Shown here piece by piece: positions 2,353 to 18,902 of a stretch of DNA of 20,198 nucleotides. A model generated the notes under the pieces. That model searched no databases, was not told the origin of the DNA, and saw only the letters and a list, made by a program, of their open reading frames with translations. A program made the position numbers and the translations under genes. The first letter of the stretch is position 1. Every line of letters begins with the position of its first letter. The stretch comes from Saprospiraceae bacterium (GTDB lineage: Bacteria > Bacteroidota > Bacteroidia > Bacteroidales > JAIPBB01): positions 1 through 20,198 of the forward strand of contig JAIPBB010000050.1 in NCBI GenBank assembly GCA_021739805.1, read 5' to 3'.

Positions 2353-5145
2353 ATGAAAAAGAACGATTTAATTCTCGTATTATCAGTGGCTTTATACAGC
2401 CTTTTGTTTTACCATCAAGCTTTAGGAATAAATTTCTTTATTTTTTCCATTGCAATGGTGGGTGCATTTGTAGTTCTTGACAAAGAATTGCTTAAAGACA
2501 AATCATGGCTGGGTGCTGCCGCCGGTTCAATTGTTTCAGGTTTTACGGTTATGTATTATGGAAATGGTCTTGCGGTTACAGCCAACGTTATTTCTCTTTC
2601 GCTTTTGTCGGGACTAAGTATTAGCCGAGGTTCGTCAATTTTGCTGACATTACTTTATTCGGCATATTCTTATGTGACCGCCATTGCATTTATGATTGTT
2701 GATTTGGTTCAACGAAAGCAAGTTAAATCCACTACCAAAGGAAATAGTTTCTGGATAAAGTTTGGAATTGGATTGATAATATTTGTCGTTGTGATATTGT
2801 TCTTCTTTCTCTATCAAAAATCGAATTCATTATTTAAAAATTTCACCGAGCAAATCAATTTCGATTGGATAACTTGGAGTTGGGTTAGGTTTACTTTTCT
2901 TGGCTTTATTATCCTTTATGGCTTCTTTTATCATAGAAATTTCCCATCATGGTTTAAAAAAGACAGCCAAGCTCCGAATCTTCTAAATCGTGAAAAAATC
3001 GAAAATTCTGAAAATTCATTTTTCGGAAAATTGCTGAATATTAATGTGGAGCTTTATTCGGGGATTGTATTGTTTGTGCTTTTAAATATCCTGATTTTAA
3101 TAGTAAATATCCTGGATATTATTTATTTGTGGCTTTCGTCGGGAACTTTGCCCGAAGGAATGACTTACTCCGAATTTGTTCACCAGGGAACAGGAAATCT
3201 AATCGCTTCAATTGTTTTTGCAATTTTGATAATCTTGTTTTATTTCCGCGGACATTTAAACTATTTCGCAAAAAATAAAGGAATAAAAGCATTGGCATTT
3301 CTTTGGGTTGTTCAAAATGCTTTTATGGTTATTTCGGCGGCTTATAAAAATCTCCTTTATGTTTCTGAATACAGCCTGACCTACAAAAGAATCGGTGTTT
3401 ATATTTACTTATTGCTTTGTCTGATTGGACTTATCACCGCTTTGGTGAAAATCTATAAGCAAAAAAGCAATTGGTATTTATTCCGAAAAAACAGTTGGGC
3501 ACTTTATCTTGTTTTGGTTCTCACTGCCTTAATAAATTGGGACCAGTTTATTACTGATTTTAATATTGAAAATTCGAAATCAAGAATTGATAAAAAATAC
3601 CTGGTTGAATTAAACTCAACCAACATACCTGAATTGCTTCTACTTGCAAAAGATACAAGCACTAATGAAAATTATTCATATTCTGACTATGATGATGATT
3701 ACAACTCATATTGGGAATATAATGATGGGAAAACCCGGGGAGGTTATAGCGAAGATTTTACGAACAGGATACATAATAAAATGTTTAAATTTTTAGCATC
3801 ACATGCAGAATTAGACTGGCAATCATGGTGCGTTGATAAAAATAAAACAGCAAAGCAAATTTATAAACTTCATGATGATGGAAAAATCAAAAGTCTAAAT
3901 TTAAGGGGATATGGAAAGGACAATTTATTGCCAATTCAAAAATTTACTAAGCTTGAACATCTGAATATTTCTGACATTGGTTCGGTTAATCTTGAAGAAC
4001 TTAAGCCATTTGAAAATCTAAAGACTTTGGAGCTTTCATCGGATGATATTTATTCTATTGATAAACTTCCGGTGATGGAGCAACTCGAAGAACTCTATCT
4101 TGATTATAATAATATTGATGATTTCAGCCATTTGAAAAATTATTCAAATCTTGAGATTCTTAATATTGCTGAGAATTCAGATGTTGAACTTAAATCAATC
4201 GTTGGGTTGAATAAACTGAAAAAATTAGATATTTCCCGAAATTCAATTAAAGACCTTAGCTCTTTAGGACAATTTCCAATGCTTACTGAGTTGGATTTAA
4301 GTAGTCAAAGAAGTTTTAATTTCGAGACTTTTCCAAAAATCGAATCACTTGAAATTCTCAATCTTTCAGGGAATAAGTTTACAAACAACGAAATAAAATT
4401 ATTAGACAAACTTAGAGAGCTTGATAATTTACGTGATTTGAATTTGGCTAATAATTCGATGAGAAGTCTTTATATTTTAACTAATTATTATATAAAGAAC
4501 AATTCATTAATCCTTAAAACGAAAAAGGAAGATGAAGTTGTTGGATTACTTCCAAACATTGAAAAGTTGAATGTTATGAATAATAACATTAATGATATTT
4601 CTGCTATTAAGTATTTTCAAAATCTCGTATATTTTAATGTTTCGTATAATAAAGTTAGCAACTTATCATCTTTAAAAGACCTTAGTAAAATTGAAACATT
4701 AGAATTGAATAATAACCAGATTAGCAATCTAAAAGGTATTGAAGGCTTGCTAAGTTTAAAATCGCTTTACCTTTCAAATAATTCAATAATTGAGCTTAAA
4801 AACCTTAAAGATTTAAGCAAACTTGAATATCTGGATTTATCTGCAAATAATATTACTGATGTTTCATCTTTAAATGCTTTAACCGAATTAAAATTGCTAA
4901 AACTAAGCGGAAACAGGATTAATGATATATCTGTACTTAAAAACCTTAAGAATCTTGAAACTCTTTATTTGCTTGATATGACAACTTTTGAGATTTCTCA
5001 GTTATACGAATTTACTATGTTAAAACAACTTTATCTGCAAACAGCAACACAGGAGGAAATTGATTTATTAAAAGATAAACTTAAAAACACTGAGGTTTAT
5101 GTGAAGCATATTAAAAGAGAAAATGATAGGAGTTTTATTAGATGA
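2353..5145 (+). CDS. DUF4173-type membrane protein fused to C-terminal leucine-rich repeats
   Basis: The 930 residues fall into two halves. Residues 1-400 contain about 10-12 transmembrane helices, with features of the DUF4173 family (PF13687): LPEGMTYSEFVHQGTGNLIAS at about 266-286 and LTYKRIGVYIYLLLCLIGLITAL at about 343-365. An acidic, Tyr/Asp-rich linker (YSYSDYDDDYNSYWEYND, 441-458) follows. Residues 510-900 hold about 14 leucine-rich repeats. The later ones (775-875) have a clear 22-residue period of the SDS22/internalin kind (LxxLxxLxLxxNxIxDxSxL). The earlier repeats are irregular, with an insert near 705-730 (YYIKNNSLILKTKKEDE). Plain DUF4173 proteins are about half this length, so the LRR half is an added domain, probably for protein binding. 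Ligand, topology and function are unknown. It is probably in one transcript with the VanZ-like gene. Confidence 0.8.
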   Translation: MKKNDLILVLSVALYSLLFYHQALGINFFIFSIAMVGAFVVLDKELLKDKSWLGAAAGSIVSGFTVMYYGNGLAVTANVISLSLLSGLSISRGSSILLTLLYSAYSYVTAIAFMIVDLVQRKQVKSTTKGNSFWIKFGIGLIIFVVVILFFFLYQKSNSLFKNFTEQINFDWITWSWVRFTFLGFIILYGFFYHRNFPSWFKKDSQAPNLLNREKIENSENSFFGKLLNINVELYSGIVLFVLLNILILIVNILDIIYLWLSSGTLPEGMTYSEFVHQGTGNLIASIVFAILIILFYFRGHLNYFAKNKGIKALAFLWVVQNAFMVISAAYKNLLYVSEYSLTYKRIGVYIYLLLCLIGLITALVKIYKQKSNWYLFRKNSWALYLVLVLTALINWDQFITDFNIENSKSRIDKKYLVELNSTNIPELLLLAKDTSTNENYSYSDYDDDYNSYWEYNDGKTRGGYSEDFTNRIHNKMFKFLASHAELDWQSWCVDKNKTAKQIYKLHDDGKIKSLNLRGYGKDNLLPIQKFTKLEHLNISDIGSVNLEELKPFENLKTLELSSDDIYSIDKLPVMEQLEELYLDYNNIDDFSHLKNYSNLEILNIAENSDVELKSIVGLNKLKKLDISRNSIKDLSSLGQFPMLTELDLSSQRSFNFETFPKIESLEILNLSGNKFTNNEIKLLDKLRELDNLRDLNLANNSMRSLYILTNYYIKNNSLILKTKKEDEVVGLLPNIEKLNVMNNNINDISAIKYFQNLVYFNVSYNKVSNLSSLKDLSKIETLELNNNQISNLKGIEGLLSLKSLYLSNNSIIELKNLKDLSKLEYLDLSANNITDVSSLNALTELKLLKLSGNRINDISVLKNLKNLETLYLLDMTTFEISQLYEFTMLKQLYLQTATQEEIDLLKDKLKNTEVYVKHIKRENDRSFIR

Positions 5146-6507: not shown

Positions 6508-6570
6508 TGATGTAATGCGATAATGCGATAATGATGTAATGCGATAATGATGTAATGATAGTATGATGTA
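6506..6570 (+). repeat. Imperfect 8-bp tandem repeats (AATGCGAT / AATGATGT)
   Basis: Beginning at the stop codon of the preceding gene, units AATGCGAT and AATGATGT alternate irregularly for about eight copies before giving way to the 11-bp array. Both arrays share the AATGA core, so one may have evolved from the other. Confidence 0.75.
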
Positions 6571-6724
6571 ATAACAACTGAATGACAATCGAATGACTAC
6601 TTAATGACAACCGAATGACAACTGAATGACCACTTAATGACCACTTAATGACAACCGAATGACAACCGAATGACAACCGAATGACAACCGAATGACAACC
6701 GAATGACAACCGAATGACAACTTA
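6571..6724 (+). repeat. 11-bp tandem array, 14 units of ATGACAACCGA
   Basis: Fourteen consecutive 11-bp units run without a break. Units at 6604 and 6648-6713 (six in a row) are exact copies of ATGACAACCGA. The others vary at the end (ATGACCACTTA twice, ATGACTACTTA, ATGACAACTGA, ATGACAATCGA, ATGACAACTTA). The plus strand has stops in every frame, so the array is non-coding. Unit variation concentrates in the last six bases, and the homogeneous block sits at the downstream end. Confidence 0.95.
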
Positions 6725-6760
6725 ATGACTAATAATGACTTTAATCTTTTAATAATCAAA

Positions 6761-8059: not shown

Positions 8060-8596
8060 TTGACAGCAAACAAAAACATAGCATATTATGTGATAGCAAT
8101 AGTAATTTTTATTTTGCTGAAATTTTACTATACAATTGCTGATAATGAAGACCTAATTTTATTATTGGCTCCAACCAGCAAAATCATCAGCCTTGTAACA
8201 AATACAAGCTCAGAGTTTTTGTTGGATAGCGGATACTTTTTCGAAAAATTAAATATTGTAATTGATAAATCCTGCTCAGGATTTAACTTTTTGATATTAT
8301 GCTTTATTATGCTCACATTCTCAGGGATTAAATTCTTTAAGAGTAGAAATAAAAAAATCCTATTAATGCTTATTTTACTTTTCACATCCTATTTTCTGAC
8401 AATCTTTGTGAATACTTCTAGAATAATGTTTTCCGTTTTTAGTAGAAATTATGGAGCAAATTTTATCGACAATCAAATAGATTGGTTACATCAGGCTGAA
8501 GGTACATTTATATACCTTTCTTTTCTTATTATCATTTATTTAGCTTTTAATTTAGTAATAAAAAAAATAACTCATAGCAATGAAAAACTTACTTAA
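8060..8596 (+). CDS. xrtK: Exosortase K
   Basis: This 178-residue protein with about five transmembrane helices carries the exosortase/archaeosortase catalytic triad in order: Cys72 in KSCSGFNF, Arg121 in VNTSRIMFS and His144 in DWLHQAEGTFIYL. The short length and the immediate MSEP-CTERM neighbour fit exosortase K (TIGR04287). By family knowledge exosortases are membrane transpeptidases that recognise a C-terminal tripartite signal (short motif, transmembrane helix, basic tail) at the cell membrane, and cleave or transfer the protein there. The start is TTG at 8060: an in-frame stop lies at 8039-8041, and the next methionine is beyond the catalytic cysteine. Its end overlaps the next ATG by 17 bases, implying translational coupling with the substrate gene. 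Confidence 0.88.
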   Translation: MTANKNIAYYVIAIVIFILLKFYYTIADNEDLILLLAPTSKIISLVTNTSSEFLLDSGYFFEKLNIVIDKSCSGFNFLILCFIMLTFSGIKFFKSRNKKILLMLILLFTSYFLTIFVNTSRIMFSVFSRNYGANFIDNQIDWLHQAEGTFIYLSFLIIIYLAFNLVIKKITHSNEKLT

Positions 8597-11426
8597 TCCC
8601 AAATGGATTTTTTTAATAAACACTATTCCAATAGTCGTGCTTTTCTTCATTTTTTTTGGTGAGTATAATATTATAAAAAGCTTGCTAACCGACGAAAACC
8701 TAATCGCCTGGAAAAAATTCGGATTAATTTTAGGAATTCTAGGAACGCTGAATTTTCTTTATGCAGTTCTCCTTGTCGTAAAAAGAAAGGAAGTTTCAGC
8801 AATTTATGGAGTCGTAGCCTTGCTGATTTATATTCCATTTCTATATTTGTATGGTAATTATGCTGAGGATATTATTCCATTTAACATTCCACAATGGATG
8901 ATTTCAGACAATATGTTTCTATATGTAGGAACTTTCATAATGCCAACATTAGCTTACTCTTTATTTGTTTTAGTTACTTATTTAACCCCAAATGGTAGCG
9001 AAAAAAAGGCATGGAAGAATTTTTTAGTTGTAATAATAATTCCAATTTCCTGGTATTTATTTACGCAAGTAATAATTCCTTTTTGGCAGCCTGTGGGTTC
9101 GAATTTTAGCATGCACACTATTATTATTTTTATAATTATCAGCACTTTAATTTTTTTGTTCTTTTTAATTCGAGCTATTTACATTTTAGGATTGAAAAAA
9201 GCCAGTGCCTGGAGCAAATATCAATTGGCTTGGAAAATCCCCATTTCAATTGTTCTTCCATTATTAGGTTTAGCTATTAATAATGGCTTATTATTCAAAG
9301 ATGTGTATTATTATAATTCAGGTATTTTTGGAGATTTTCATAACATTTGGTTTTATATTCTTGCTGTAGCTAATGGAGTATTTATTTGCCTTCCTGGTTT
9401 AGAAAACAAACTCTATAGACTTTTGTTATTTATCGGACGTACTGTGACATTTGCCTTTACATTATATTTTTTCATGGTTTTCATACCTTTTCTTCCTTTG
9501 TCAGTTATTGCTATTTTGGCTTTTGGTGCAGGCTTTTTAATGCTTACACCTTTGGTCTTATTTGTTATTCATCTAAGCGAATTAACAAATGATTTCAAAT
9601 TTTTAATAAATTTCTTTTCGAAAAAATTAGTTCGTTTAATAGCGATTCTAAGCTTTTTTGTTTTGCCTGTCATTATAACTATAACTTACCTGAAGGATAG
9701 AAGTGTACTAAATGAAACTCTAGATTATTTGTATGCTCCGGATTATTCCAAAAACTATAATATTAATGAAACCTCATTATCAAAAACAATTGATGTTGTA
9801 AAACGACATAAAGAAAGAAACAATGATTTCATATTTAGTAGCCAAATTCCTTATTTAACTTCCTATTTCAATTGGCTAGTATTAGAAAACCTAACTTTAT
9901 CAGACTCGAAAATCAACAATATAGAAAATGTGTTTTTTGCTAATGGAACATACAACCCAAGGTCTGAGAATATCAGAAATGAAAATGTCGAAATTTCAAA
10001 TGTGAGTTCAAGCAGCAGGTTTGATAAGAGTCAGAATGCCTGGATAAGTTGGGTAGATTTGGAAATCACAAATAATTCCACAAATAATTTGTTTGCAGAA
10101 TATGCAACTACCATAGAATTACCTGTGGGATGTTGGATAAGCGATTACTATTTGTATGTTGGAAAGAGAAAAGAAATGGGAATTTTAGCTGAAAAAAAAT
10201 CAGCAATATGGGTGTTTTCTCAAATTCGTAACGCAAACAGAGACCCGGGAATTTTGTATTACTTAGGTGGAAATAAAGTTGCTTTTAGAGTATTTCCTTT
10301 TTCAAAAGAAGAGATAAGAAAAACTGGAATAGAATTTATTCACAAAGAGACTGTAAAGCTTAATTTTGACGGGAATATAATTGAACTGGGAAACAACTCA
10401 ATGCCAAATAAAAATTCATTTAACACAAAATCTGATGATAATGTGATATACATAACAGCTCAGGAAAAGTCAACTTTAATGAAGGTTCAGAGAAAGCCCT
10501 ATTATCATTTCTTAGTTGATGTTTCTGAGGGTGGAGAAAAACACAAAGATGAATTTGTTAGAAGAATTGAAAATTTATTAAAAAGAAATATTATTAGCAG
10601 CGATAATGCTCAAATTAGTTTCGTGAATTCTTTTACTTCCACTTTTTTATTGAATAATAACTGGAAACAAAGAATTAACGAGCAAAAATTTCAGGGTGGG
10701 TTTTATTTAGATAGGGCAATTAAAACTACTCTATTTCATTCTTACAAATCAATAAGCAATTCATATCCAATAATTGTAACTATTACTGACAATATTGAAA
10801 ATGCAATTATTGAAAAGGATTTTTCAGATTTCAAAATGGCATATCCCGAAAGTGATTTGTTTTATAATTTAAATAAATATGGAGATTTAAAACCACATTC
10901 TTTATCTGATAATCCAATCAGGCAAATTCACGACACATTAAATTTGAATTTCAATAATAAAGTACTGGCATTTCCAAATAGCAAGAATCCTATAGCTTAC
11001 TTATCAGATAACCAACAATCAAGCATAATTTTAAAAAATGACCTTTTTGAAATTAACGATAAAGAAATAAAAGAAAAAAACTGGCAATCTGCATTAGAAT
11101 TACAAGCTATGTGGATTTCACAAGTTTTACATCCTGAAACAACGGTCAAAGAATGGCTAAATTTAGTAAAATATAGTTTTATATCTAAAATTATGTGCCC
11201 GGTTACTTCTTATATGGTGGTGGAAAACGAAGCACAAAAAGCAATCTTGAAAAAGAAGCAGGAGCAAGTACTTTCAAGTAATAAATCTTTAGACATAGGT
11301 GAAGATACACAACGAATGTCGGAGCCTAGTTTAATATTATTGATTTTATTAATTGGTTTGCTCTTTTGGTTTAAGAAAAAGAGAATACGACAATGGGTAA
11401 AAATGACAATAAGAAATCAGAAATGA
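8580..11426 (+). CDS. MSEP-CTERM protein, VIT domain, predicted substrate of exosortase K
   Basis: The 948 residues comprise about ten transmembrane helices within 1-370, a soluble region at 371-905, and a C-terminal sorting signal. That signal is MSEP at 913-916, a hydrophobic helix at 917-931 and a basic KKKRIRQ stretch from 932, with a further ten-residue polar tail. The combination of length, MSEP motif and adjacent XrtK is the signature of TIGR04286. Within the soluble part, 485-600 reads as a VIT domain (ATTIELPVGCWISDYYLYVG, RKEMGILAEKKSA, RDPGILYY, VFPFSKEEIRKTGIEF). Residues 640-740 look like a von Willebrand A fold with an altered metal site (Asp647-Val-Ser649-Glu-Gly651 instead of DxSxS). 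CPVTSYMVVENEAQ (874-887) is the kind of segment that ends many VIT/VWA proteins. Function unknown. Confidence 0.88.
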   Translation: MKNLLNPKWIFLINTIPIVVLFFIFFGEYNIIKSLLTDENLIAWKKFGLILGILGTLNFLYAVLLVVKRKEVSAIYGVVALLIYIPFLYLYGNYAEDIIPFNIPQWMISDNMFLYVGTFIMPTLAYSLFVLVTYLTPNGSEKKAWKNFLVVIIIPISWYLFTQVIIPFWQPVGSNFSMHTIIIFIIISTLIFLFFLIRAIYILGLKKASAWSKYQLAWKIPISIVLPLLGLAINNGLLFKDVYYYNSGIFGDFHNIWFYILAVANGVFICLPGLENKLYRLLLFIGRTVTFAFTLYFFMVFIPFLPLSVIAILAFGAGFLMLTPLVLFVIHLSELTNDFKFLINFFSKKLVRLIAILSFFVLPVIITITYLKDRSVLNETLDYLYAPDYSKNYNINETSLSKTIDVVKRHKERNNDFIFSSQIPYLTSYFNWLVLENLTLSDSKINNIENVFFANGTYNPRSENIRNENVEISNVSSSSRFDKSQNAWISWVDLEITNNSTNNLFAEYATTIELPVGCWISDYYLYVGKRKEMGILAEKKSAIWVFSQIRNANRDPGILYYLGGNKVAFRVFPFSKEEIRKTGIEFIHKETVKLNFDGNIIELGNNSMPNKNSFNTKSDDNVIYITAQEKSTLMKVQRKPYYHFLVDVSEGGEKHKDEFVRRIENLLKRNIISSDNAQISFVNSFTSTFLLNNNWKQRINEQKFQGGFYLDRAIKTTLFHSYKSISNSYPIIVTITDNIENAIIEKDFSDFKMAYPESDLFYNLNKYGDLKPHSLSDNPIRQIHDTLNLNFNNKVLAFPNSKNPIAYLSDNQQSSIILKNDLFEINDKEIKEKNWQSALELQAMWISQVLHPETTVKEWLNLVKYSFISKIMCPVTSYMVVENEAQKAILKKKQEQVLSSNKSLDIGEDTQRMSEPSLILLILLIGLLFWFKKKRIRQWVKMTIRNQK

Positions 11427-11643
11427 AATCAGAGCAAGACACTTCGGCTCCGCTCAGTGTCCATTAAGGTTCATTGAGCGAAGCCGAAATGAACAATGAA
11501 CTACGAGCAATCAAGACGGAGGAAGCAAGCTTCGCAAGAAACCAGTAACAAGCAACGAGTAACAAGCAACGAGTAACAAATCAACTATAACAAAAACTTC
11601 CGACTTCGGTCTTCCGACTTCGGACTAATAAAAAAACAAAACC
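11427..11643. repeat. 217-bp spacer with hairpin, 14-bp direct repeat and dispersed word
   Basis: The spacer holds the inverted repeat 11443-11488, a 14-bp direct repeat (AACAAGCAACGAGT twice, 11547-11574) and the 25-base word 11597-11621, which is the exact reverse complement of 5223-5247. No gene is seen. Confidence 0.7.
11443..11488. repeat. Inverted repeat after the MSEP-CTERM gene
   Basis: TTCGGCTCCGCTCA (11443-11456) and TGAGCGAAGCCGAA (11475-11488) pair at 13 of 14 positions around an 18-base loop. The stem begins 17 bases after the MSEP-CTERM stop codon. There is no U-tract on either side, so intrinsic termination is doubtful; RNA end protection or a dispersed palindromic repeat is more likely. 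Confidence 0.65.
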
Positions 11644-12363: not shown

Positions 12364-13776
12364 CTACTGCAACACAAGTTTTTCAACTTTAACAAAATCT
12401 TTGTTTGCAATTCTTATTAAGTAAATTCCTTTTGAATAATTTGTGGCATAAATTTGTTTATCAAATATATCCTTTACACTATTGAATTTTTCAGAGCTGA
12501 GTATTCTTCCACTTAAATCAATAATTTGCAATTCAAAATCACCTTTAATTCCATTAATTACAATATTGAATATTCCTTTTGTTGGATTAGGAATTAAAGA
12601 AATAGAATTACTGTTGTACTTATCATTAATTCCAGTATCGTCAATTACTTCAACAACTATTGTATCGCTTGCCATACATCCAAAGCTACTCACTTCAACA
12701 AAATATGTGTGTATTCCCACACCTACAACAGAACCAATAATTTGCCTGATTTTATTTTTTGAATTATCGTCCCACAAATACGTTGCAAAGCTTGAACCGG
12801 CATCAAGTGCTAATGTTTGACTTAATCCAATAATAGTATCAGCACCAAGATTTACTATAGGAATTGGATTTACATGAACATAAACAGTATCTGATGCACT
12901 ATTACCAGCATCAGAAATTGTAACAATAAAAGATGTATCATAAGGAAGATTATTTGGATGAGGTGGAAGATGAATTGCAGAGGGATTAAAAACCGTATCA
13001 CCAGTACTCCACAAAACACTTATGTTTGCTTGGGGACAAATAATTTCAACTTCATCAATTCCCCAGGCATCGAATCCTGTGCTTGATGTAGCTAATTGTG
13101 CCCATCTAAATTTGGCGTTTGAAATTGATGCAACCGGAGGAATAGTGCTAGAATATCTATGCCAAAAATAAGCTGTATTAGCATTTTGGGCTGTCGGACC
13201 TATAGATGGAATCCAATATCCACCCGAACCATTTGTGTTTGTAATAAATGGCCCAGTTGATGAATTTGGTCCAATAGGATTTACATTTGGTTCGGGAAAA
13301 TCAGTCCAGGTTAATCCATTATTAACAGAATATTGCAAATGTACTCCTTCATTTGCTGCATCAGGGTCTTCACAGTTACCTAGATTCTGATCTCGCCCAT
13401 ATCTCATATCCCAGTTAATAACACAGTTCCCTGTACTAACATTATAATTAGCTGTTTCTAGGGTTCTTTGTAGAGAAGCTGTTGTTCCAATCCAAACATG
13501 AATTCCAATAGGGCCTGGACCACAAGGATTTGTGAAAACAGGATTTGCCAAGGTTGATGACCATCCTATTCCAATAGTCCCATTATTGAAGTCATTTTTC
13601 ATTAGATAACCACAACTTCCGGTTGCAGATAAAGTGATAGAATCCCCTGCACAAATTACGTTTGGATATGCTGTTGCCTGAATAATACATTGAGAAAATG
13701 ATTTAATCCCAAAGCTTAGAATAAATAATAATCCAAAGTACTTTATCGCTGATGTTAATAAATTAATCTTATTCAT
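12364..13776 (-). CDS. T9SS-secreted protein with jelly-roll-like and PKD/Ig-like domains (copy 1)
   Basis: This is a 470-residue secreted protein. Residues 1-28 are a signal peptide (basic MNK, hydrophobic core, SFSQ before the mature end). The N-terminal domain (about 55-250) has a jelly-roll, reelin-repeat-like look: FNNGTIGIGWSS, NPVFTNPCG, INWDMRYGRDQ, EGVHLQYSVNNGLTWTDF and the closing WGIDEVEIICP, with paired cysteines. A PKD/Ig-like segment follows (about 305-378: VNLGADT, LDAGSSFATYLWDDNS, TYFVEV). A type A T9SS sorting domain ends the protein (about 390-470: SLIPNPTKGIFNIVI, KGIYLIRI, VEKLVLQ). The PNPTKG entry motif is clear. It is a close paralog of the next gene, with the same length and domain order. 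An adhesive or extracellular-matrix role is a guess. Confidence 0.9.
   Translation of the reverse strand: MNKINLLTSAIKYFGLLFILSFGIKSFSQCIIQATAYPNVICAGDSITLSATGSCGYLMKNDFNNGTIGIGWSSTLANPVFTNPCGPGPIGIHVWIGTTASLQRTLETANYNVSTGNCVINWDMRYGRDQNLGNCEDPDAANEGVHLQYSVNNGLTWTDFPEPNVNPIGPNSSTGPFITNTNGSGGYWIPSIGPTAQNANTAYFWHRYSSTIPPVASISNAKFRWAQLATSSTGFDAWGIDEVEIICPQANISVLWSTGDTVFNPSAIHLPPHPNNLPYDTSFIVTISDAGNSASDTVYVHVNPIPIVNLGADTIIGLSQTLALDAGSSFATYLWDDNSKNKIRQIIGSVVGVGIHTYFVEVSSFGCMASDTIVVEVIDDTGINDKYNSNSISLIPNPTKGIFNIVINGIKGDFELQIIDLSGRILSSEKFNSVKDIFDKQIYATNYSKGIYLIRIANKDFVKVEKLVLQ
12548..12657. repeat. Homogenised block, copy A
   Basis: This 110-bp stretch encodes the linker and entry of the T9SS sorting domain. 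It matches 14159-14268 at all but four bases by eye. The flanking parts of the two paralogous genes are much less alike. Confidence 0.8.
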
Positions 13777-13974: not shown

Positions 13975-15387
13975 TTATTGAATCACTAATTTTTTCATTT
14001 CGATAATGTCATTATTTGTAAGTTTAATATAGTAAATGCCTTTTGCCAGCATACTTACATTTATTTCTTTAACATAGCCATTTTTAATTCCATTAAGTTT
14101 TTCAGAGCGATGAATTTTTCCGTTAATATCAATGATTTGCAAATCGAAATCACTTTCAATTCCATTAATTACAATATTGAATATGCCTTTTGTTGGATTA
14201 GGAATTAAAGAAATAGAATTACTGTTGTACTTATCATCAATTACTGTATCGTCAATTACTTCAACAACGATAGTATCACTTCCCTGACATCCATTTGGGT
14301 CTGTCACATCAACATAATAAGTGTGAGTTCCAAGACCTGCAATAGAAGCAATAATTTGAAGGCTTTGGTTGGAAGAATTATCATTCCACAAATAAGTAGC
14401 AAAGCCTGCTCCGGCATCAAGTGTTAATGTATGACTTAGTTTAAGAATAGTGTCAAGTCCAAGATTTACTACAGGAGAATTTACATGAACGCAAACAGTA
14501 TCTGTTGCACTATAAAGAGAATCAGAAATTGTAATTATAAAACAAGTATCATAAGGAAGATTGTTTGGATGTGGAGGAAGATAAATAGTACCAGGGTTAA
14601 AAACTGTATCTCCTGTGCTCCATAAAATATTTGTATTAAGTGTAGGGCAAATAATTTCAACTTCATCAATTCCCCATGTGTCATGTCCTCCCGTTGATAA
14701 ACATAATTGTGCCCATCTGAATTTGGCGTTTGAAATTGATGCAACTGGAGGAATAACACTAGAATATTTATGCCAAAAATAAGCTGCATGATTTGATTGT
14801 GCAGCTGAATCTGAAACCGGTTGCCAATATCCACCGGAACCAGGAGTAGTTGTAATAAAAGGTGGTGTTGGTGAATTTGGTCCAGATGGTAAAATATTTG
14901 GTCCGGGAAAATCTGTCCAAGAAGCTCCAGCATTTATAGTATATTGCAAATGTACTCCTTCATATATAGCATCAGGAGCATTGCAATTTCCAATGTTTTG
15001 ATCTCGACCATATCTCATATACCAATTAATTACACAATTACCGACAGAAACATTATAATTACTTGTTGTCATTGTTCTTTGTATAGATGCTAGTGGTCCA
15101 ATCCAAATGTGATATCCGTTAGGACCGGAACCACAAGGATTTGTAAAAACCGGATTAACAGTTAGTGATGACCATCCCATTCCAATAGTCCCATTGTTAA
15201 AACCATTTTTCATTAAATAACCACAATTTCCTGTTGTTGATAAAGAAATGGAATCCCCTGCACAAATTGTGTCTTGAGAAACAGTTGCCTGAACATAGCA
15301 TTGAGAGTAGGATGTTAATTCTGAGATAATTAAAAGCATTAATCCAAAATACTTTATTATGGGTATTATTAAAGGGAATTTATTCAT
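13975..15387 (-). CDS. T9SS-secreted protein with jelly-roll-like and PKD/Ig-like domains (copy 2)
   Basis: This paralog of the 12364 gene has the same length (470 residues) and the same order: signal peptide (1-29, ending SYSQ), jelly-roll-like domain (FNNGTIGMGWSS, NPVFTNPCGSGP, INWYMRYGRDQN, EGVHLQYTINAG, WGIDEVEIICP), PKD/Ig-like segment (VNLGLDT, LDAGAGFATYLWNDNS) and type A T9SS tail (SLIPNPTKGIFNIVI, KGIYYIKL, MKKLVIQ). The two proteins differ at many sites in the N-terminal domain and in the last 60 residues, but are nearly identical from EVIDDT to FNIVINGI. The preceding leader contains TTTTGC but only an imperfect -7 box. It probably has its own promoter, since 198 bases separate it from copy 1. 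Confidence 0.9.
   Translation of the reverse strand: MNKFPLIIPIIKYFGLMLLIISELTSYSQCYVQATVSQDTICAGDSISLSTTGNCGYLMKNGFNNGTIGMGWSSLTVNPVFTNPCGSGPNGYHIWIGPLASIQRTMTTSNYNVSVGNCVINWYMRYGRDQNIGNCNAPDAIYEGVHLQYTINAGASWTDFPGPNILPSGPNSPTPPFITTTPGSGGYWQPVSDSAAQSNHAAYFWHKYSSVIPPVASISNAKFRWAQLCLSTGGHDTWGIDEVEIICPTLNTNILWSTGDTVFNPGTIYLPPHPNNLPYDTCFIITISDSLYSATDTVCVHVNSPVVNLGLDTILKLSHTLTLDAGAGFATYLWNDNSSNQSLQIIASIAGLGTHTYYVDVTDPNGCQGSDTIVVEVIDDTVIDDKYNSNSISLIPNPTKGIFNIVINGIESDFDLQIIDINGKIHRSEKLNGIKNGYVKEINVSMLAKGIYYIKLTNNDIIEMKKLVIQ
14159..14268. repeat. Homogenised block, copy B
   Basis: Partner of 12548-12657, in direct orientation, 1611 bp away. It covers the same codons of the second paralog. Confidence 0.8.
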
Positions 15388-18414: not shown

Positions 18415-18636
18415 ATGGCTTTATTAGTTATTGATAGTAAGGATAATGGGTTTCTTAGTCTTATACATAATTTGGTTAATAAATTTAAAGGTGCAAAAGC
18501 TGAATTAATTGAGACTGAAGATAGCATTTCTGAATTGGAAGATAAATTTCTGGCAAAGGAAATAAAAAAAGGTCTTGAAAGTGGTATTGCATCCAAAAAA
18601 GAGAAAGAAACTTTTATGAATGATTTGTTGAAATAA
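18415..18636 (+). CDS. Putative antitoxin of a RelE/ParE-type pair
   Basis: This 73-residue protein is encoded directly before a RelE/ParE-like toxin and shares one base with it (TAATG). The N-terminal half (about 1-30) is short and hydrophobic with MALLVIDSKDNGFLSLIHNL. The rest is highly charged and probably helical (ETEDSISELEDKFLAKEIKKGLESG, then KKEKETFMNDLL), the kind of extended segment that wraps a toxin. I see no clear DNA-binding fold, unlike many RelB antitoxins, so autorepression is uncertain. The call rests mostly on gene order, size and overlap. Confidence 0.75.
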   Translation: MALLVIDSKDNGFLSLIHNLVNKFKGAKAELIETEDSISELEDKFLAKEIKKGLESGIASKKEKETFMNDLLK

Positions 18637-18902
18637 TGGAAACAAACTTAACCAATTCATTTATAAAATCTGTCAACAAAATAAAAGATAAGAAGCTTAA
18701 ACTATTAATTTCCAAAATTATTAATGATGTTGAATTAGCAAAAGATTTTGAAGAGATTCAAAATATAGTAAAACTCACCGGTTATAAGGCTTATTACAGA
18801 ATAAGACTTGGTAAATATAGAATTGGCATTGAAATTAGTAATGATGTTGTAACTTTCTCAGCATTTGCTCACCGAAGTATGATTTATAAAAAATTTCCTT
18901 AG
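18636..18902 (+). CDS. RelE/ParE-superfamily toxin
   Basis: This 88-residue protein has the RelE/ParE layout. Two helices come first (SFIKSVNKIKDKKLKLLISKIINDVE), followed by the beta-sheet core with the family's characteristic segment: VKLTGYKAYYRIRLGKYRIGIEISNDVVTFSAFAHR, then YKKFP. In this superfamily the YRIRLGKYRI strands and the basic AHR...YKKF end carry residues used in ribosome-dependent mRNA cleavage (RelE) or gyrase inhibition (ParE). Which of the two applies cannot be settled here. The one-base overlap with the antitoxin stop ensures coupled translation. A terminator lies 25 bases after its stop. Confidence 0.87.
   Translation: METNLTNSFIKSVNKIKDKKLKLLISKIINDVELAKDFEEIQNIVKLTGYKAYYRIRLGKYRIGIEISNDVVTFSAFAHRSMIYKKFP

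What the first reader, a model, noticed from the sequence alone, without database searches (positions are those of the whole stretch)
8060..11426. Exosortase K overlapping its likely sole substrate, an MSEP-CTERM VIT protein
Seen: a 178-residue membrane protein with Cys72/Arg121/His144, whose gene overlaps by 17 bases a 948-residue protein ending in MSEP, a hydrophobic helix and a basic stretch. Known: this is the arrangement behind TIGR04287/TIGR04286. Exosortases usually serve many proteins, but this type pairs with one. Inference: a dedicated sortase for one multispanning protein is unlikely to export a cargo pool. It may mature or re-anchor one large membrane machine whose role is, to my knowledge, unknown. 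No other MSEP-like C-terminus is seen in this window.
Basis: partly seen in the sequence, partly recalled or inferred. Interest (0 to 1): 0.75.

Follow-up and report, generated by a model that had tools for sequence, protein, structure and literature searches.

The report
Dedicated exosortase and its membrane client
The window holds a known pair, a small membrane protease and the one large membrane protein whose tail it probably cuts; the new point is that in many relatives from one bacterial family the protease gene is missing and the big protein carries the tail signal of a different protease, so cutting that tail seems to matter more than which enzyme does it.

Summary
xrtK (8060-8596, TIGR04287) overlaps by 17 bases a 948-residue MSEP-CTERM protein (8580-11426, TIGR04286), both far over curated cut-offs. 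C72/R121/H144 are invariant in 50 of 50 aligned XrtK. The substrate is modelled as about 11 membrane helices, a VIT and a VWA domain like inter-alpha-inhibitor heavy chain, a disordered MSEP linker and one last helix. "Sole substrate" holds where testable: no second MSEP tail in 12 of 12 XrtK genomes; the window's own genome is not held.

The new part lies outside the window. In 150 genomes of the family of Hymenobacter aquaticus, 27 carry the substrate and 7 XrtK. All 7 with XrtK have MSEP; all 19 intact ones without it end in P-[ILV]-D, helix and basic tail, the PID-CTERM type (15 of 19 over cut-off), and all hold exosortase X. No xrtK is found at 12 of 12 fetched loci of these. The tree favours one switch. 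So a dedicated client was probably handed to another exosortase. Cleavage, its product and the protein's function are untested.

The parts
8060..8596 (+). xrtK, exosortase K, 178 aa, TTG start
   Evidence: TIGR04287 135.8 bits, cut-off 55; 150 relatives, 120 listed
8273..8275 (+). codon of catalytic-type Cys72 (with Arg121 at 8420-8422 and His144 at 8489-8491)
   Evidence: invariant in 50 of 50 aligned XrtK; that these are catalytic is recalled from the superfamily; a Cys active site of archaeosortase A is named in PMC7157517 passages
8580..8596 (+). 17-base overlap of xrtK and the substrate gene; probable translational coupling (inferred)
   Evidence: same 17-base overlap in 8 of 12 other loci; 97 of 120 listed XrtK proteins end in a peptide that fits it, by a loose pattern
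8580..11426 (+). MSEP-CTERM VIT protein, 948 aa, likely sole XrtK client
   Evidence: TIGR04286 940.2 bits, cut-off 150
8601..9734 (+). polytopic membrane part, about 11 helices (residues 8-385), N-terminus inside
   Evidence: AlphaFold2 helices; K+R alternation of loops over 65 sequences
9987..10394 (+). VIT domain (residues about 470-605)
   Evidence: model; Foldseek 6fpz ITIH1 E 9e-9; hhalign to XrtN-type VIT proteins 98.8% over columns 248-607
10485..10973 (+). VWA-like domain (residues about 636-798) with a degenerate metal motif, DxSxG in the window
11316..11327 (+). MSEP motif (residues 913-916) in a disordered linker, predicted periplasmic
   Evidence: pLDDT under 50 at residues 910-917; Pro916 invariant in 65 of 65, MSEP- and PID-tailed alike
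11331..11423 (+). C-terminal helix and basic tail (residues 918-948)
   Evidence: helix 918-947 in the model; K+R 3.2 against D+E 0.2 in 934-948

Best explanation
XrtK is a small membrane cysteine enzyme of the exosortase kind made together with its single client. The client has about 11 helices in the inner membrane, a periplasmic VIT-VWA ectodomain like an inter-alpha-inhibitor heavy chain, and a tail of MSEP, helix and basic residues. XrtK most likely attacks the disordered MSEP linker at the outer face of the membrane, removes the last helix and passes the new C-terminus to water or to an amine-bearing acceptor such as a lipid. As the client stays held by its other helices, the step matures it and does not export it. 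What selection keeps is the removal of this tail rather than XrtK itself: in 20 of 27 substrate-bearing genomes of the Hymenobacter aquaticus family XrtK is absent, the intact clients (19) have a PID-CTERM type tail, and exosortase X is present. Shown: families, invariant residues, modelled folds, no second MSEP tail in XrtK genomes, the match of tail type to enzyme. Inferred: cleavage, chemistry, coupling, the hand-over and its direction. Unknown: what the client does.
For: Families and cut-offs. Invariant Cys/Arg/His. Fold, disordered MSEP, topology. No second MSEP tail in 12 of 12 XrtK genomes, and no such tail in 4 of 4 XrtK-less ones, best E 0.04. Tail and enzyme match: 7 of 7 XrtK genomes MSEP, 19 of 19 intact XrtK-less ones P-[ILV]-D. 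Of the 19, 15 tails pass the PID_CTERM cut-off. XrtX is present in 20 of 20 XrtK-less substrate genomes against 48 of 123 without substrate and 2 of 7 with XrtK (Fisher p 6e-8 and 3e-4, no correction for kinship). Changed tails share on average 0.53 identity with the best sampled small PID-CTERM tail of their own genome and 0.48 with the mean of other genomes; MSEP tails share 0.21. Same locus without xrtK: aconitase lies upstream in 7 of 7 MSEP loci and in 7 of the 12 XrtK-less loci that were fetched (12 of 19), and XrtK is not matched in any of the 12 at E 1e-8. Two XrtK genomes also hold XrtX, a plausible intermediate. Of 235 relatives taken from two capped lists, 160 have an MSEP-type and 73 a PID-type motif and 2 differ by one residue from MSEP.
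Against: No cleavage of any member has been measured. The tree gives one switch (87/89 support, one change in 88% of bootstraps), so 19 genomes are not 19 independent events. Letter make-up is uneven in 8 of the 41 rows of that tree, and it used no mixture model. Three tails (G410, G476, G478) were not found by the PID model at E 0.001 and one (G520) scored 25.0 against 26. XrtX is common, 70 of 150 genomes. Five of the 12 fetched XrtK-less loci lack the aconitase neighbour. The acceptor and product are unknown.
Confidence: 0.7

Rival explanations
1. The tails are plain stop-transfer anchors. The changed tail of the XrtK-less proteins is drift of an unprocessed helix, and the match to PID-CTERM is coincidence.
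For: Four of 19 changed tails miss the PID model cut-off; many have VPLDDY or VPLN in place of PIDGG.
Against: The invariant proline followed by I, L or V and then D or N is kept across a divergent clade; genome-wide E down to 1.6e-12 for a changed tail; all 20 substrate genomes without XrtK hold XrtX.
Confidence: 0.15
2. XrtK has further clients whose tails do not look like MSEP, so it is not dedicated.
For: The tail search used an MSEP-built profile and would miss other motifs.
Against: Tight co-occurrence and usual gene overlap with this one protein; XrtK over cut-off was found in no sampled genome without the substrate (4 of 4 and 7 of 7 had it).
Confidence: 0.2
3. The changed proteins are xenologues: a PID-tailed gene arrived from elsewhere and replaced the resident pair.
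For: Homologous membrane VIT proteins with another enzyme exist: XrtN-type in 21 of 150 genomes, none shared with the 27; support for one PID group is not full; 5 of 12 fetched XrtK-less loci lack the aconitase neighbour.
Against: PID proteins nest inside the MSEP proteins of the same family and 7 of 12 fetched loci keep the aconitase neighbour.
Confidence: 0.12

Closest known systems
Exosortase K / MSEP-CTERM system (NCBIfam TIGR04287, TIGR04286)
   Same: The window pair is a full member: both proteins over cut-off, adjacent, overlapping.
   Different: Nothing in the window. In the Hymenobacter aquaticus family, 19 intact proteins over the same cut-off have no MSEP and no XrtK, though source names call many such proteins MSEP-CTERM.
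Exosortase X / PID-CTERM system (NF046081, NF046080)
   Same: Supplies the tail type and the likely enzyme of the changed clade.
   Different: Its other sampled clients are small, 64 to 138 residues as read (open frames up to 302), not polytopic proteins.
Exosortase N / XrtN system VIT protein (TIGR04476, TIGR04477)
   Same: Membrane VIT protein beside an exosortase; homologous over part of the length.
   Different: Enzyme gene downstream and tail VPEPHEW in the four loci read, all four confirmed as TIGR04477 and TIGR04476; the window protein is far below the TIGR04477 cut-off.
VIT/VWA proteins with GlyGly-CTERM, LPXTG or PEP-CTERM (PMC3237569, section 12 read)
   Same: Precedent that homologues of one VIT/VWA family carry tails for unrelated sorting enzymes, with a dedicated sortase beside the LPXTG ones.
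   Different: Described there for other VIT/VWA proteins; this switch is inside one curated family, partly at one locus, with loss of the dedicated enzyme.
Archaeosortase A (PMC7157517, passages read)
   Same: Same superfamily; its cleavage is tied to lipid anchoring, which guides the chemistry proposed here.
   Different: Serves several exported proteins (recalled); here one polytopic protein.

Membership tests
Exosortase K (TIGR04287) | score over curated cut-off | tested here: met
   135.8 bits, cut-off 55
Exosortase K (TIGR04287) | conserved Cys, Arg, His of the superfamily | tested here: met
   C72, R121, H144 invariant in 50 of 50 aligned; activity not shown
MSEP-CTERM protein (TIGR04286) | score over curated cut-off, full length | tested here: met
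   940.2 bits, profile 1-917 of 920
MSEP-CTERM protein (TIGR04286) | MSEP, helix, basic tail | tested here: met
   sequence; helix 918-947
MSEP-CTERM protein (TIGR04286) | MSEP present in the 19 intact XrtK-less members of the G168 family that pass the cut-off | tested here: not met
   0 of 19
PID-CTERM (NF046080), for those 19 | score over cut-off 26 bits | tested here: inconclusive
   15 of 19 over it, 1 at 25.0, 3 not found at E 0.001
XrtN system VIT protein (TIGR04477) | score over cut-off 250 | tested here: not met
   49.7 bits, residues 250-584
VIT-VWA ectodomain of the ITI heavy chain type | VIT followed by VWA fold | tested here: met
VWA with standard metal site | DxSxS motif | tested here: not met
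   window has D647, S649, G651; third Ser in 2 of 65
Dedicated exosortase pair | cleavage of the client by XrtK | not testable with these tools
   needs wet work

The most novel reading that the evidence does not exclude
Exosortase clients are portable. A polytopic VIT-VWA membrane protein whose C-terminal tether must be cut has been passed from a dedicated enzyme (K) to a general one (X) by change of its last 30 residues or so and loss of the old enzyme gene, and remote homologues use a third enzyme (N). Tail cutting itself would then be the conserved activating step of this protein.
Probability: 0.6. Interest if true: 0.65.

Novelty: new variant of a known kind. Interest (0 to 1): 0.52.

Why it matters
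The window pair alone is a known, curated arrangement. The switch seen in the Hymenobacter aquaticus family is a natural experiment: it points to MSEP as the XrtK signal, suggests that recognition lies in the tail, and indicates that selection keeps tail processing of this protein even when the enzyme changes. It makes the role of a one-client exosortase testable by tail swaps and enzyme deletions in laboratory strains. It also warns that the name MSEP-CTERM is given to proteins without MSEP.

Tried and rejected
Whole-genome look at the window's own assembly: not held, so "sole substrate" was tested only in relatives. Aconitase as a shared neighbour of XrtN and XrtK loci: seen in 3 of 4 fetched loci from the phylum sample but 0 of 8 from the G168 family, so dropped. 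P0232 seemed to lack a tail; it has MSEP followed by a fused downstream stretch, and was left out of the trees. Independent repeated switching: the G429/G419/G434/P0185 group looked separate but the tree prefers one change. A fold match for XrtK in the PDB: none at E 0.001 for a model of mean pLDDT 84.0, none by sequence with a credible E. A mutual exclusion of XrtN-type and MSEP-family genes (0 shared of 27 and 21 in 150, p 0.011 without kinship correction) may only reflect genera. Weaker matches: 80 of 395 genomes hit TIGR04286 at E 0.001 but 75 of these lie below the cut-off, in the rows shown mostly over the VIT part alone; 9 of 395 and 11 of 150 hit TIGR04287 below its cut-off, the 11 all in genomes of the XrtN-type list. 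misread loci on the minus strand and was replaced. Literature: none of the 30 listed of 75 papers with exosortase or MSEP-CTERM shows MSEP-CTERM; 12 papers for PID-CTERM, exosortase K or X, XrtK, XrtX, XrtN, all unrelated by title; none with Hymenobacter and exosortase; Haft 2012 is not held. The library holds open papers only.

Full report
What is there. The ORF list and sequence confirm a 178-residue ORF at 8060-8596 (TTG start) and a 948-residue ORF at 8580-11426, same strand, 17-base overlap. NCBIfam names them exosortase K (135.8 bits, cut-off 55) and MSEP-CTERM sorting domain-containing protein (940.2 bits, cut-off 150). The 17-base overlap is itself common: exact in 8 of 12 other XrtK loci, and 97 of 120 listed XrtK relatives end in a peptide that fits it, by a loose pattern. 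Translational coupling is the natural inference.

Is it the sole substrate? The window's genome is not held. A profile of 13 MSEP tails was run over 16 genomes. In the 12 with XrtK it found one tail each (E 1.9e-13 or better, by construction, since those tails built the profile) and nothing else better than E 0.06. In the 4 without XrtK the best match was E 0.04, and two clients' own tails rang only at 0.28 and 0.35. XrtK over its cut-off was found in 4 of 395 genomes drawn from the phylum of G002 and the substrate in 5, the four included; G002 was chosen for having the pair. Other clients with a different motif would be missed by this test.

The exception that explains. The fifth genome, G168 (its protein is that of Hymenobacter aquaticus, P0121), has the substrate, no XrtK match, and a tail that scores as PID-CTERM (28.9 bits, cut-off 26). 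One of the 27, G447, is broken and was left out of the tail count. Of the other 26, the 7 with XrtK have MSEP and the 19 without have P-[ILV]-D, helix and basic tail. Of the 19, 15 pass the PID-CTERM cut-off, G520 scores 25.0, and G410, G476 and G478 are not found at E 0.001. Exosortase X is present in all 20 XrtK-less substrate genomes, G447 included. Five of the 7 XrtK genomes show no exosortase but XrtK and no PID-CTERM match at E 0.001; the other two, G459 and G498, have XrtX as well. XrtX is found in 70 of 150 genomes overall, so its presence alone is weak, but 20 of 20 exceeds 48 of 123 and 2 of 7 (without kinship correction).

How the switch happened. On trees built without the tail, PID-tailed proteins form one group nested within MSEP proteins of the same family (support 76 in FastTree on 104 rows thinned from those at hand; 87/89 in IQ-TREE on 41 chosen rows under LG+G4, one change in 88% of bootstraps). 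FastTree flagged two long rows, G139 and G291, and uneven letter make-up in most rows; they were not in the second tree, where 8 of 41 rows were uneven. Neighbourhoods were fetched for 12 of the 19 XrtK-less clients: 7 have the aconitase gene upstream that all 7 MSEP loci have, 5 do not (one on a cut contig), and XrtK is matched in none of the 12. PID-type tails resemble the sampled small PID-CTERM proteins: mean 0.53 to the best of the same genome, 0.48 to the mean of other genomes, against 0.21 for MSEP tails. Best-of and mean are not the same yardstick, so this does not show copying within a genome. Direction, MSEP to PID, rests on the nesting.

A third enzyme. The XrtN-type VIT proteins are homologous over part of the protein (98.8%, E 5e-17, columns 248-607). 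The four loci read end in VPEPHEW with the enzyme downstream and all four pairs pass the TIGR04477 and TIGR04476 cut-offs. In the 150 genomes they occur in 21, none among the 27. PMC3237569, section 12, reports VIT/VWA homologues with GlyGly-CTERM, LPXTG or PEP-CTERM tails. Tail exchange on VIT proteins is thus a known theme; the case inside one curated family, with loss of a dedicated enzyme, was not seen in the listings of the searches made.

Verdict. The window pair is an ordinary, well-marked member of a known system. The wider comparison gives a probable hand-over of a dedicated client to another exosortase. Function of the client, cleavage and product are untested.

Noticed in passing
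window 2353-5145: 930-residue protein joining a DUF4153 membrane domain (169.5 bits) to a long leucine-rich repeat region.
   Followed up: no
window 12364-13776 and 13975-15387, minus strand: Two adjacent similar ORFs of 470 residues each whose C-terminal stretch looks like a type IX secretion sorting domain (by eye).
   Followed up: no
window 6570-6729: 11-base tandem repeat, 14.5 copies, 87% match; further short arrays at 1655-1775 and 11535-11623.
   Followed up: no
window 18636-18902: 88-residue ORF that reads like a RelE-type toxin (recalled resemblance, no search).
   Followed up: no
L065-L076, L144-L172: Sampled XrtX clients are tiny, with a signal-like start and a mostly Gly/Pro-rich mature part before the PID tail.
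   Followed up: partly
P0122-P0134 and others: Hymenobacter proteins named MSEP-CTERM by their sources lack MSEP and end in a PID-type tail.
   Followed up: yes
L102 (G447): Substrate gene appears broken (one TAG inside, part of the profile) in a genome with two XrtX genes and no XrtK match.
   Followed up: partly
P0232: MSEP tail followed by about 140 further residues that look like a fused downstream lipoprotein gene.
   Followed up: partly
P0250, P0347: Two MSEP relatives with one-residue changes of the motif, MSES and MNEP.
   Followed up: no
L049-L051: XrtN-type loci lie beside aconitase genes, as do the MSEP loci of the G168 family; not seen in 8 XrtN-type loci of that family.
   Followed up: yes
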